DNA of 5,393 nt, from contig JAKAYH010000190.1 in NCBI GenBank assembly GCA_021826835.1, forward strand, positions 1 through 5,393, written 5' to 3'. The notes under the pieces were generated by a model. It was not told where the DNA came from and searched no databases. It worked only from the letters and a program-made list of their open reading frames with translations. This DNA comes from Thermoplasmata archaeon (GTDB lineage: Archaea; Thermoplasmatota; Thermoplasmata; Thermoplasmatales; Thermoplasmataceae). The position numbers and the translations under genes are program-made. Shown here in pieces: positions 339 through 3,644 of the stretch (position 1 is the first letter of the stretch; each line of letters opens with the position of its first letter).

Positions 339-563
339 ATGACTGAGCTTGAAAATAAAAAGCGAAAGGAAAGCTTACTTTCCATGGTAACGTACCATAA
401 CATTATTCTGGCAATTAGTTTCATATTCCTGTTGATAGGAATCCTGTTTTATGTATCATGGTCGATCCTTTATAATACGTGGGGAGACCCAGGTCTTTAC
501 TCCTTCTGCCTGCCTATGGCTGTGTTCGGTCTTATTGGAATTGCGTATTCAAAGGTCAATTGA
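339..563 (+). CDS. Small two-helix membrane protein, unknown function
   Basis: This 74-residue protein is not one I recognise. It has a short, highly charged N-terminus (MTELENKKRKES), a hydrophobic helix at about residues 21-44 (IILAISFIFLLIGILFYVSW), a short polar turn (NTWGDPG), and a second helix at about 52-71 (LYSFCLPMAVFGLIGIAYS). The positive charge before helix 1 favours an N-in, hairpin topology with both ends in the cytoplasm. The start ATG at 339 is chosen because a TATA-like element lies about 27 bases upstream. A second ATG at 384 would remove the charged tail. The gene converges on the VirB4-like ATPase gene, and the two coding regions overlap by 15 bp at their 3' ends. It could be an independent hypothetical gene, or an accessory to the neighbouring secretion-like cassette (small two-helix proteins are common in such machines), but nothing in the sequence proves a link. 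Confidence 0.6.
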   Translation: MTELENKKRKESLLSMVTYHNIILAISFIFLLIGILFYVSWSILYNTWGDPGLYSFCLPMAVFGLIGIAYSKVN

Positions 564-2342
564 ATTTCCAGAATCCATGACCATGATTTTCTTCAATGCC
601 CCTCTCGTATAGAGATACATCTCCGAGAAATGAGTGTTCTTTCCACCCATCAACGGCTGGTTATGATTATATCCGTAATCTTCAGGTTTTATGCCTATCT
701 CTGCAAGTTGATCCCACAACTTGTTCCTGAATATGAACATATAATTTGAATTATTGAAAATGCTGTCATAAGGTTTATTGAGAAAATCTGAGATATCCTG
801 GGTAATAAGAACAATTGACGTTGAGTAATGCCTCGATGTTCTCACCATATCCAGGATAACATCTCTCGTTTCTATATGTGACAGGAATTTGTGTGCCTCA
901 TCGATTATAATGATCTTCCTCTTGAGGTCGCATGTTAAAAATGCCTTTACCGCATTCATGTCAGATTCTTCAGGTGGTCTTTGGTCAACCGTTATTTGTA
1001 TCATTTCATCGTTTCTGCCAAACCTTGCAAAATCGTTTAAAGGATCGCAAATATAAGCTTTCTCAATCGAATCGAAATGAATAAGCCTTGATAGGAGAAG
1101 ATTTGCAAAATAACTCTTCCCTGATCCTGTTTCACCAAGGATCAGAATGTTGTTGGATGTTCCTTGAAATATGTCGAGAACCACTGGATGATGCCCGGAG
1201 GGTTCGAATCCAATGGGTATTCCATCATCCATGGACGACTTCGACATGAATGGAATCAGGGGTGCGACAGACTCTTTTGAAATAGCATACTTCATGGTCA
1301 TATTTCCCGTGTAAACGAACTTTCTTATTTCTTTTCGTCTATTCACGATATAGAAATCAAGACCAAGGAATTTTGCCTTGTTGACGACATTTCTCAGGTT
1401 GTTATTTAGATCTAAGGGATTATCTCCACGCACTATAATGCCGGAATTGAAAAGTGCAAAATCCTTCCTCTCCTTTGCGTAATATTTCTTTGCAATTTTC
1501 AAACGATATTCATCGAATTGCGATACCGACTTTCCTCTGGTTTTCTTCATTCGTGATGAGGCAAGTATTGTACTCATATGCCTTCTGTATTCATTGAATT
1601 CACTTTTCTCAAGATCCCTTATATTAAAGCGCAGCAGGATATCAAAGTCAAGCTCGAAGAGTAAATCAGATATCTGAAACGATTTATCACCGGATGAATT
1701 TTTGAGGTATATGAGACAGAAATAACCATTGAACCTGAAATATCGATTTCTGAAATCCATTCCTCTAACTCCGGTGAGCCCAAAATCCCTGAGCCATCCA
1801 CTGTAGTCATCTGGTGAAGCAGGAAGGAGTTTAATACCTCCGGTGTTGAATATCCTTATAATTCTGTCTGTATCCTTCCTCTTTATTATTATGGCATGGT
1901 GGGCTTTTCTAGGATATACATAGTTACTTTCTTCATGTCTCTCCCGCGTCCATAGAAATGGCTTGATGTCTTTATTTCCCATTTCGTTGGTGAAAGTAGA
2001 GATGAATTTTAAGTCAATCTCATTGTCCCTGAAGAGGGATATCAGGTTCTGCATTTTTGATTCATTTAGATCGATCCTGTCATCCCAGTTAAATTCAAAG
2101 TCGATGAAAAACATGTTCACTCCATCCTTAGGCAGGTCAAATTTATCTTCATTTTTAATGAATTTGGCGAAGAGAAATATCATCAGCGCCAGAGTCACGC
2201 ATAAAGCTGCTAAAAAGTAGAGGGATTGCAGGGCAAGAGTCAAAGAAATCAGGATAATGACGAATACTGTTAAAAAAAATTTACTTTCACTGTCTGTACC
2301 TTGAAAAATGTTTACAGGCAATCTAAGATCTTCCTTATTCAT
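549..2342 (-). CDS. VirB4/HerA-family membrane-anchored DNA-transfer ATPase (CedB-like)
   Basis: A 597-residue motor protein. Residues 21-60 hold two adjacent hydrophobic segments (KFFLTVFVIILISLTLAL and YFLAALCVTLALMIFLFA), a membrane hairpin. Residues about 70-345 form a divergent VirB4-type N-terminal domain; 296-345 (FNSGIIVRGDNPLDL...) resembles the strand region preceding the motor in VirB4. The line 'PLIPFMSKSSMDDGIPIGFEPSG' (361-383) is a typical VirB4 lead-in. Walker A is GETGSGKS (403-410). Walker B is KIIIIDEAH (476-484), with Asp481-Glu482. A sensor/arginine region follows: RTSRHYSTSIVLITQD (501-516), including the Gln of the 'TQ' motif. All key ATPase residues are intact. By family it should be a hexameric ATPase at the inner face of the membrane powering DNA or pilin movement. 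The two-helix leader resembles a VirB3-VirB4 fusion or CedB. The start ATG overlaps the stop of the upstream gene (TAATG), implying translational coupling; GGGGGA lies about 11 bases before it. It is last in the three-gene operon. A pure HerA end-resection helicase is disfavoured by the membrane anchor and partners. Confidence 0.85.
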   Translation of the reverse strand: MNKEDLRLPVNIFQGTDSESKFFLTVFVIILISLTLALQSLYFLAALCVTLALMIFLFAKFIKNEDKFDLPKDGVNMFFIDFEFNWDDRIDLNESKMQNLISLFRDNEIDLKFISTFTNEMGNKDIKPFLWTRERHEESNYVYPRKAHHAIIIKRKDTDRIIRIFNTGGIKLLPASPDDYSGWLRDFGLTGVRGMDFRNRYFRFNGYFCLIYLKNSSGDKSFQISDLLFELDFDILLRFNIRDLEKSEFNEYRRHMSTILASSRMKKTRGKSVSQFDEYRLKIAKKYYAKERKDFALFNSGIIVRGDNPLDLNNNLRNVVNKAKFLGLDFYIVNRRKEIRKFVYTGNMTMKYAISKESVAPLIPFMSKSSMDDGIPIGFEPSGHHPVVLDIFQGTSNNILILGETGSGKSYFANLLLSRLIHFDSIEKAYICDPLNDFARFGRNDEMIQITVDQRPPEESDMNAVKAFLTCDLKRKIIIIDEAHKFLSHIETRDVILDMVRTSRHYSTSIVLITQDISDFLNKPYDSIFNNSNYMFIFRNKLWDQLAEIGIKPEDYGYNHNQPLMGGKNTHFSEMYLYTRGALKKIMVMDSGNSIDL

Positions 2343-3289
2343 TACTTCCCAGTTCCCCCTAGAAATCTCTCGATATTAGCTTCCGGATAAGAGACGGATA
2401 AACTCATCTCCCTTCTTTCCATTTCGGACATTGATCTACCTGGAAGATCTCCTGCATAGGTGATCGCAGTTTCAGGTGAGAATGCCTGAACAATGTACGG
2501 GACAGACGAGAATGTTGAAGATGCGGTGCGGTATATTCCCATTGAAAACAGGGCTGGAGTGGCTACAACAAAAATCAGGATCCCTAACTGGGCAAAACTG
2601 TCGTGAGAAAGATTTATGTAAATGTAGAGGAGAGGAATGATCATCAAAGGAAATAAGGAAGTCTCTATGAAAAGGAGCCATAACTTCAACATAATTTCCC
2701 TTCCCTTCTGAAATACCAGAGAAAAGGAAAAAAACGGTAAGAAGAAATAGAAGGCTATTAGAATCCCGAGCCTCAGCATCAGAAATATTCCAAGTTCAAT
2801 ACCTGACACTGTGTATATAGCTGAAAAAAATATGAGTGCGTAGGAATTGCTTGCTTCCAGGTTGTTCGTCATTTGAGACACCATGTATGAGTCAGAAAAG
2901 TAATATGGAAGGTTTTTCATATAAACATTTAAGGTGCTGACCAGCAGGTAGATAATTTCCATGGAGTATCTTATGAAATAAGTGCCGAGTATGGTGAGGA
3001 GGACAGCCAGTGAAATTCTCTGAAGGAAACTGGAAATATTTGCATTCTTGTCAGTAATTATCTGGATTCCTGCAATTGCCGCAGCAATCATGGCAAGGTA
3101 CGGAAAATATATACGCTCATACACATAGATGTTCATGATATTGTGGTTGAACATAGACCAAACAATGTAATCATTTCTTGAAAGGATACCCTGATTTATG
3201 TCTATTTTCCATATGAATTGGGATAACGAAAGCTCAACTGTCAGAATAATTTTTGCAATAATCGACGTAATGAATTTTTCCGAAATCAT
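2342..3289 (-). CDS. Polytopic membrane protein, VirB6/CedA-like candidate DNA channel
   Basis: This 315-residue protein has about six or seven predicted membrane helices, at roughly residues 61-79, 92-106, 109-123, 150-170, 171-193, 200-225 and 234-253. An amphipathic or membrane-dipping N-terminal segment (about 5-27) precedes them, and a polar C-terminal tail (254-315: ...DLPGRSMSEMERREMS...GGTGK) follows, probably cytoplasmic. The stretch PFFSFSLVFQKGREIMLKLWLLFIETSLFPLMIIPLL (185-221) resembles the region of VirB6/TrbL proteins where a short charged loop separates two long helices. I do not see a diagnostic motif, so the assignment rests on size, topology and position between a pilin-like and a VirB4-like gene, the arrangement seen for CedA in archaeal DNA import. 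The start ATG overlaps the upstream stop in an ATGA junction (3286-3289), and the stop shares one base with the ATPase start. A general transporter is an alternative, but the operon argues against it. Confidence 0.65.
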   Translation of the reverse strand: MISEKFITSIIAKIILTVELSLSQFIWKIDINQGILSRNDYIVWSMFNHNIMNIYVYERIYFPYLAMIAAAIAGIQIITDKNANISSFLQRISLAVLLTILGTYFIRYSMEIIYLLVSTLNVYMKNLPYYFSDSYMVSQMTNNLEASNSYALIFFSAIYTVSGIELGIFLMLRLGILIAFYFFLPFFSFSLVFQKGREIMLKLWLLFIETSLFPLMIIPLLYIYINLSHDSFAQLGILIFVVATPALFSMGIYRTASSTFSSVPYIVQAFSPETAITYAGDLPGRSMSEMERREMSLSVSYPEANIERFLGGTGK

Positions 3290-3591
3290 GGATTTCCAGT
3301 TATTATGAAATTAAAGAGACCGAAGATGACACCTGTCACTGCCATGACATATATTGCTGTTCCAATTGCAGCATTTCTGAGTTTCTCGTATGCGTTGTAT
3401 TTTCTAGTCTCATCTGCACTAAAGAAACCTATGGCAATCGGAATCCATAATACAGCTATTATAACAGCTGATATTGAGATCAGGACATCCATGCCTCTTC
3501 CCAAAATTGCATTTAGTTCACTTATGCCACTCAGAGTCGCAAGAGGCATGTTCGTAATTTTAAGCAAATCCATAAAACCTGAATATTGCAT
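3286..3591 (-). CDS. Small two-helix protein, candidate VirB2/CedA1/TedC-like pilin
   Basis: From the first ATG (3591) the protein has 101 residues. A polar/amphipathic N-terminal segment of about 35 residues is followed by a hydrophobic helix at about 36-58 (VLISISAVIIAVLWIPIAIGFF), a charged loop (SADETRKYNAYEKLR), and a second helix at about 75-98 (AIGTAIYVMAVTGVIFGLFNFII). Two helices joined by a short charged turn, rich in small residues, is the fold of conjugative pilins (VirB2/TraA) and of the archaeal CedA1/TedC filament subunits, which pack with lipid. No class III signal peptide of archaeal type IV pilins is visible. TTG (3597) and ATG (3573) are other possible starts; the TATA at 3606-3612 would place the transcript start near 3582 and favour 3573, whereas an upstream TATA (3634-3644) allows 3591. 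The gene is first in the operon and overlaps the next gene by four bases (ATGA). The pilin call is by topology and context, not by motif. Confidence 0.6.
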   Translation of the reverse strand: MQYSGFMDLLKITNMPLATLSGISELNAILGRGMDVLISISAVIIAVLWIPIAIGFFSADETRKYNAYEKLRNAAIGTAIYVMAVTGVIFGLFNFIITGNP

Positions 3592-3603: not shown

Positions 3604-3644
3604 TAATTTATATGCTCTTTGATCACATCACCATAAAATATATT
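3604..3644 (-). promoter_or_regulatory. Promoter region of the pilin/channel/ATPase operon
   Basis: Read on the minus strand, two TATA-like elements are present: AATATATTTTA (3644-3634) and ATATAAAT (3613-3606). Taking a start site about 27 bases downstream, they predict transcripts beginning near 3612 and near 3582 respectively. The second would be almost leaderless for an ATG at 3573. Between them lies the interrupted inverted repeat TGAT-GTG-ATCA (3620-3630), next to the proximal TATA at the position of a BRE or operator. Which element is used cannot be decided from sequence alone. Confidence 0.45.

What the first reader, a model, noticed from the sequence alone, without database searches (positions are those of the whole stretch)
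549..3591. Three-gene VirB2/VirB6/VirB4-like cassette: candidate euryarchaeal counterpart of the Ced/Ted DNA-import system
Three overlapping genes (ATGA and TAATG junctions) encode a two-helix small protein, a 6-7 helix membrane protein, and a membrane-anchored VirB4-type ATPase with intact Walker A (GETGSGKS), Walker B (IIIIDEAH) and TQ motif. This is the minimal set known for the archaeal Ced (CedA1/A/B) and Ted machines, which are related to conjugation apparatus and were characterised in Thermoproteota. Here the context (pcc1, pfdB, MptA, tRNA-Arg) is euryarchaeal, probably Thermoplasmatota. Natural Ferroplasma populations are reported to recombine extensively, and a dedicated DNA-exchange machine would offer a mechanism. 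I cannot exclude that homologues in this lineage are already catalogued.
Basis: partly seen in the sequence, partly recalled or inferred. Interest (0 to 1): 0.85.

Follow-up and report, generated by a model that had tools for sequence, protein, structure and literature searches.

The report
Minimal mating-pilus machine of acid-loving archaea
Three overlapping genes encode the core of a small conjugation-type pilus machine that acid-loving archaea such as Ferroplasma carry as a stable chromosomal trait, and it probably moves DNA between cells, although nobody is known to have tested that.

Summary
In detail: three overlapping minus-strand genes (549-3591) encode a VirB4-type ATPase, a 6-helix membrane protein and a 2-helix small protein. 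The ATPase is VirB4, not HerA (strong). The small protein's family matches the Pfam T4SS pilin (35 of 37 members at E up to 1, best 1.2e-7; the window's own copy does not). The 6-helix model's best structural matches are R388 VirB6 (suggestive only). The ATPase N-terminus carries a VirB3/PrgI-like hairpin, a separate gene in 12 of 30 relatives. Pilin, channel and ATPase are collinear in 39 of 40 family loci and 14 of 14 chosen outside loci. The channel gene is in 57 of 61 family genomes, the ATPase in 58 of 61; the ATPase tree follows RNA polymerase: a vertically inherited chromosomal system rather than a mobile element. It resembles Ted of Thermoproteales more than Ced, whose CedB and CedA tests it fails. 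A 2016 Cuniculiplasma paper already lists such a cluster as type IV secretion components, so its existence is not new. Apparently new are the pilin and VirB3 assignments, the near-universal vertical inheritance and the Ted parallel. DNA exchange is inferred, not shown. Interest 0.62.

The parts
3289..3591 (-). VirB2-like pilin candidate (101 aa, two helices); stop codon at 3286-3288
   Evidence: Family level: PF18895 T4SS_pilin in 35 of 37 aligned members at E up to 1, best 1.2e-7; NF045849 pilin-like in 34 of 37 at E up to 1, best 9e-8. The window protein itself: NF045849 E 0.043, no PF18895 match. AlphaFold model: helices 15-57 and 61-98, pLDDT 73, pTM 0.39.
2345..3289 (-). VirB6-like polytopic channel candidate (315 aa)
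2103..2342 (-). VirB3/PrgI-like two-helix N-terminal segment of the ATPase gene (approximate limits)
   Evidence: Own gene in 12 of 30 relatives (my reading, checked for one genome). Profile against a bacterial PrgI family: probability 93.8, E 1.7e-7; control comparisons 0.2 and 0.3. Pfam VirB3 in 4 of 28 members at E up to 1, best 7e-4; the window member had no match.
552..2342 (-). VirB4-type ATPase (597 aa)
   Evidence: AAA_10 9e-14, TraG P-loop 7e-10; VirB4_plasma 9e-19, TraC 5e-18, CedB 1e-7, HerA_antiphage 0.019; family profile against PDB: VirB4 4ag5 first, 1.4e-14.
3607..3612 (-). TATA-like box upstream of the pilin start (weak)
   Evidence: A loose TATA-type pattern lies 18-45 bases upstream in 22 of 37 loci; shuffles give 36%.
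339..563 (+). Conserved convergent two-helix protein; possible accessory, not shown to belong
   Evidence: In 58 of 61 family genomes, but away from the cassette in genera g10, g18 and g19 (one search read).

Best explanation
The cassette is a minimal, vertically inherited, chromosomal conjugation-type type IV secretion machine. The small protein is the VirB2-type pilin (from family profiles), the 315 aa protein the VirB6-type pore (suggested by structure), and the ATPase gene a fused VirB3/PrgI plus VirB4 that docks on the pore and powers it (VirB4 shown by profile, VirB3 supported by profile-profile match). In cells bounded by a single membrane a pore plus a thin pilus may be enough to join two cells. 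Most likely it carries single-stranded chromosomal DNA between cells of one population, for repair and recombination, as Ced and Ted are thought to do. Cargo and direction are inferred only.
For: Collinear genes in 39 of 40 family and 14 of 14 outside loci. Pilin family PF18895; a paralog in genome G073 passes the Pfam cut-off, 1.7e-8. VirB4 models far above HerA for the window protein: 66.6 against 13.6 bits. VirB6 structures at ranks 1-3. VirB3/PrgI 93.8. In Alicyclobacillus and Saccharibacteria loci found with this ATPase, a pilin-family protein, a polytopic membrane protein, a short two-helix protein (PrgI-like by eye and position) and VirB4 follow in that order with one extra gene in each. 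ATPase tree against RpoB: 17 of 27 splits shared, permutation maximum 3; distance correlation 0.81, 0 of 10,000 permutations as high. Found in Ferroplasma acidarmanus Fer1 and a Thermoplasma. Ferroplasma populations recombine strongly (PMC2704941, passage).
Confidence: 0.62

Rival explanations
1. Same T4SS core, but it delivers proteins to neighbouring cells (competition or signalling), like effector-type systems or perhaps the Patescibacteria T4SS.
For: The core parts are those reported for Patescibacteria: VirB4, PrgI/VirB3, VirB6 and VirB2-like (PMC12102498, passages); no relaxase PF03432; coupling protein not linked.
Against: No extra gene recurs inside the operon in the family loci. In the one locus whose neighbours I identified they are housekeeping genes (L083). 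Effector genes were not searched for.
Confidence: 0.17
2. The machine only builds a thin surface pilus for adhesion, without moving any cargo.
For: The pilin is the best conserved part: 48% mean column identity against 32% and 26%. An Ig-domain protein sits beside five pilin paralogs in L124.
Against: Channel and VirB4 motor are kept in all 40 family loci looked at (L067 cut by a contig end).
Confidence: 0.12
3. Remnant of an integrated conjugative plasmid or element.
For: VirB4 relatives lie on plasmids of bacteria and Sulfolobus. A few genomes have broken or missing parts (G035, G048).
Against: One pilin copy in each of 27 family genomes; channel in 57 of 61; tree agrees with RpoB; catalytic residues kept.
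Confidence: 0.03
4. HerA/NurA-type repair ATPase beside unrelated membrane proteins.
For: A chain labelled HerA matches the family profile at 6e-6; 7 of 31 members match HerA_antiphage.
Against: The genome has a separate HerA (NF040819, 201 bits); the window ATPase gives 66.6 bits to VirB4_plasma and 13.6 to HerA_antiphage; linkage to both membrane genes is conserved.
Confidence: 0.02

Closest known systems
Ted system of Thermoproteales (TedC pilin, TedA channel, TedB ATPase; PMC9905601, passages seen)
   Same: Chromosomal VirB2/VirB6/VirB4 set in an archaeon; canonical VirB4 rather than CedB plus CedD.
   Different: Other phylum; compact overlapping operon; VirB3-like hairpin fused to or next to VirB4; no HerA, Rad50 or ParA gene in the window. 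TedC is reported to have a cleaved signal peptide; the family pilins here show none by eye. No Ted sequence was compared.
Ced system of Sulfolobales (PMC11868833 and PMC9905601, passages seen)
   Same: Pilin, VirB6-like channel and an ATPase of the same superfamily.
   Different: ATPase far below the CedB model cut-off; no similarity between channel and pilin, which is reported for CedA and CedA1; DNA-damage induction unknown.
Type IV secretion cluster of Cuniculiplasma divulgatum (CSP5_1185-1189, CPM_1190-93; PMC5155288, passages seen)
   Same: Very probably the same locus in a relative (inferred from the listed parts): VirB4 arCOG04034, multipass protein arCOG05369, two membrane proteins.
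   Different: The words VirB2, VirB3, VirB6, Ced and DNA import do not occur in its main text.
Monoderm bacterial and Patescibacteria T4SS (MPF-FATA class; PMC12102498, passages seen)
   Same: PF18895 pilin, membrane protein, PrgI-like protein and VirB4 in the same relative order.
   Different: Components such as VirB8, VirB1 and coupling proteins are reported there; that study found no VirB3-VirB4 fusion in its Patescibacteria set, which is the state in this window.

Membership tests
Conjugation-type T4SS core | VirB4-family ATPase | tested here: met
   At E up to 0.001, 31 of 31 members match the CD1110 and TraC models and 28 of 31 VirB4_plasma. The window protein is below the curated equivalog cut-offs shown, so no named subfamily.
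Conjugation-type T4SS core | VirB2-type pilin | tested here: met
   Met for the family: PF18895 in 35 of 37 at E up to 1, best 1.2e-7; how many pass the Pfam cut-off was not shown. The window's own protein is weak, and the structure search added nothing.
Conjugation-type T4SS core | VirB6 channel | tested here: inconclusive
Conjugation-type T4SS core | VirB3/PrgI partner next to VirB4 | tested here: met
   Profile-profile probability 93.8, controls below 1; Pfam VirB3 only 4 of 28, best 7e-4. Profile hit in 38 of 40 family loci but only 1 of 14 outside loci.
Conjugation-type T4SS core | VirD4 coupling protein | tested here: inconclusive
   TrwB-like ATPase elsewhere in the genome, in 50 of 61 genomes, none of the 10 of g10, g18 and g19.
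Conjugative mobile element | Relaxase | tested here: not met
   PF03432 in 0 of 61; of 14 controls only Lactococcus rings. Other relaxase families were not searched.
Ced system | CedB ATPase | tested here: not met
   30.6 bits against cut-off 700; 28 of 31 members match below 0.001, best 9.2e-11.
Ced system | CedD partner ATPase | tested here: inconclusive
   The CedD model matches 12 of 31 VirB4 members, best 1e-8, and the genome's HerA at 126 bits against cut-off 600; no dedicated CedD search was run.
Ced system | Channel N-terminus homologous to the pilin | tested here: not met
   hhalign probability 0.6 between channel and pilin alignments.
Ced system | DNA-damage induction and DNA import | not testable with these tools
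   Needs cultures.
Ted system | Chromosomal VirB2 + VirB6 + canonical VirB4 set | tested here: inconclusive
   VirB2 and VirB4 met, VirB6 by structure only; no Ted sequence was available for comparison.
Ted system | HerA, ParA or Rad50 genes nearby (common, not defining) | tested here: not met
   The window's other ORFs are MptA, prefoldin beta, Pcc1, a small membrane protein and a fragment related to a 4HBT thioesterase. Other loci were not scanned for these.

The most novel reading that the evidence does not exclude
Thermoplasmatales, including Thermoplasma and Ferroplasma, own a third domesticated conjugation machine: a dedicated chromosome-exchange pilus with an archaeal VirB3 fused to VirB4, inherited vertically since before the family split, so that cell-to-cell DNA exchange is a core trait of these acidophiles and explains their mosaic populations.
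Probability: 0.45. Interest if true: 0.82.

Novelty: new variant of a known kind. Interest (0 to 1): 0.62.

Why it matters
In the papers seen, DNA exchange machines domesticated from conjugation are described for Thermoproteota (Ced, Ted). Ferroplasma populations recombine strongly (PMC2704941, passage), and PMC3750248 says in its abstract that all acid-mine plasmas compared but the Ferroplasma have pilus genes (its table also marks Aplasma as lacking them). A nearly universal cassette gives a concrete candidate mechanism in cultivable species. It also questions the statement in PMC11868833 that VirB3 homologues are absent in archaea.

Tried and rejected
Pilin model against the PDB: no conjugation pilin among the hits; the best rows are unrelated hairpins. 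This does not exclude the fold.

Channel against the pilin and against a two-sequence bacterial VirB6 profile: no match. The second is too shallow to mean much.

Single-sequence searches for the 315 aa protein found 5 proteins and 30 of 61 family genomes; the profile finds 57 of 61. Misses are G001, G023, G044 and G048; of these G023 and G044 have the ATPase, G001 and G048 have neither. G058 shows two full channel copies, G029 and G049 one copy in two pieces.

Relaxase absence as proof of domestication: rejected, because archaeal conjugative plasmids also lack known relaxases.

The small plus-strand gene 339-563 as a fourth component: not accepted, since linkage is lost in three genera.

Comparison with CedA, CedA1, TedA or TedC proteins: not done, I had no sequence of them.

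Full report
What is there. On the minus strand lie a small two-helix protein (101 aa from the ATG at 3591), a 315 aa protein with six hydrophobic segments and a 597 aa ATPase, overlapping by 4 and 1 bases (TM counts from my own hydropathy script). Upstream of them are MptA, prefoldin beta and Pcc1, then tRNA-Arg on the plus strand. Downstream and convergent are a small membrane protein and the end of a gene whose blastp relatives include a 4HBT thioesterase (L083).

Conservation. The window lies in held genome G000, contig C2. Of 61 family genomes, 58 have the ATPase with a single-sequence query and 57 the channel with a profile; among the 32 best genomes it is 31 in both. G048 (96% complete) has neither. 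I took 40 family loci, of the 58 genomes with an ATPase match, and 14 outside loci, of the 24 outside genomes with a pilin match, and searched all six frames with profiles: pilin, channel and ATPase are collinear on one strand in 39 of 40 and 14 of 14. The profiles were built from family loci and the outside loci were picked for their pilin, so presence is partly by selection; order and adjacency are not. The exception, L067, ends at a contig end. The VirB3-like profile hits in 38 of 40 family loci and 1 of 14 outside. In the class draw the pilin profile matched 51 of 200 genomes: 27 of this family, one each, 1 of f2 and 23 of f12 (129 misses unlisted). In the phylum draw the channel profile matched 45 of 292: 29 of this family, 5 of two sister families, 11 of f12 (227 misses unlisted). 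Channel profiles of family and outside loci agree with probability 99.1. Named records with the ATPase include Ferroplasma acidarmanus Fer1, Acidiplasma aeolicum, Cuniculiplasma and a Thermoplasma; all three genes were read in Fer1 and the Thermoplasma.

Inheritance. For 30 genomes with both genes, the ATPase and RpoB trees share 17 of 27 splits (permutation mean 0.2, maximum 3); distance correlation 0.81, 0 of 10,000 permutations as high; one pair of splits supported at 90 or more conflicts. The G054 row was dropped because no RpoB was found there. Neighbours in one locus, L083, are a thioesterase, dihydroneopterin aldolase, an NTPase and Trm1; ORFs of like size recur in many other loci. This points to a stable chromosomal trait.

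How it probably works. Inferred: the pilin forms a thin tube, the VirB6-like protein the pore, and the VirB3-like hairpin docks the VirB4 motor on it. [quoted passage not shown] Cargo is most likely DNA because the archaeal relatives with a reported role move DNA (Ced, Ted, conjugative plasmids; PMC9905601, PMC11868833, PMC12857230, passages), and Ferroplasma populations recombine strongly (PMC2704941, passage). Against this, no coupling protein is linked, and the VirD4-like candidate is missing from all 10 genomes searched of g10, g18 and g19, 9 of which keep channel and ATPase.

Known or new. PMC5155288 (passages) lists VirB4, a multipass and two membrane proteins of Cuniculiplasma as type IV secretion components; PMC10354927 (passage) mentions VirB4 in E-plasma. 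Searches listed no paper whose title or abstract start ties this cluster to Ced or Ted or names its pilin or VirB3. The lists were capped (15 of 421 shown, 15 of 170, 15 of 36, 12 of 44), I saw passages of nine of the papers, and subscription journals are mostly not held. PMC11868833 (passage) states that VirB3 homologues are absent in archaea, which questions.

Noticed in passing
L124:7826-12685 (genome G073): Five tandem pilin-like genes; three (320-353 aa) have a long outside part with a Gly-Trp rich stretch before a C-terminal pilin hairpin, a fourth (405 aa) another long outside part. An Ig-domain protein lies just upstream. The 160 aa copy passes the PF18895 cut-off.
   Followed up: partly
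window 339-563 (+): Unannotated 74 aa two-helix protein with a strongly conserved FYxxWSIxYxTWxDxGLYSF core, in 58 of 61 family genomes; its 3' end overlaps the VirB4 gene.
   Followed up: partly
L002:1435-3306 (genome contig C16): TrwB/VirD4-like ATPase in 50 of 61 family genomes, unlinked to the cassette in this genome.
   Followed up: partly
L133:8033-8482 and L124:12203-12685: These pilins outside the family begin with signal-peptide-like stretches (by eye), whereas the family's own pilins do not, echoing the reported TedC and CedA1 difference.
   Followed up: no
G048, and G035 contigs C20, C37 and C42: Within genus g18 one 96% complete genome lacks channel and ATPase, and another shows the cassette in pieces with stop codons in pilin and ATPase: possible loss, or assembly trouble.
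   Followed up: partly
L064:15541-16851: The held genome G000 has a run of N from MptA into the pilin gene, so the pilin start is missing there; the window covers it.
   Followed up: yes
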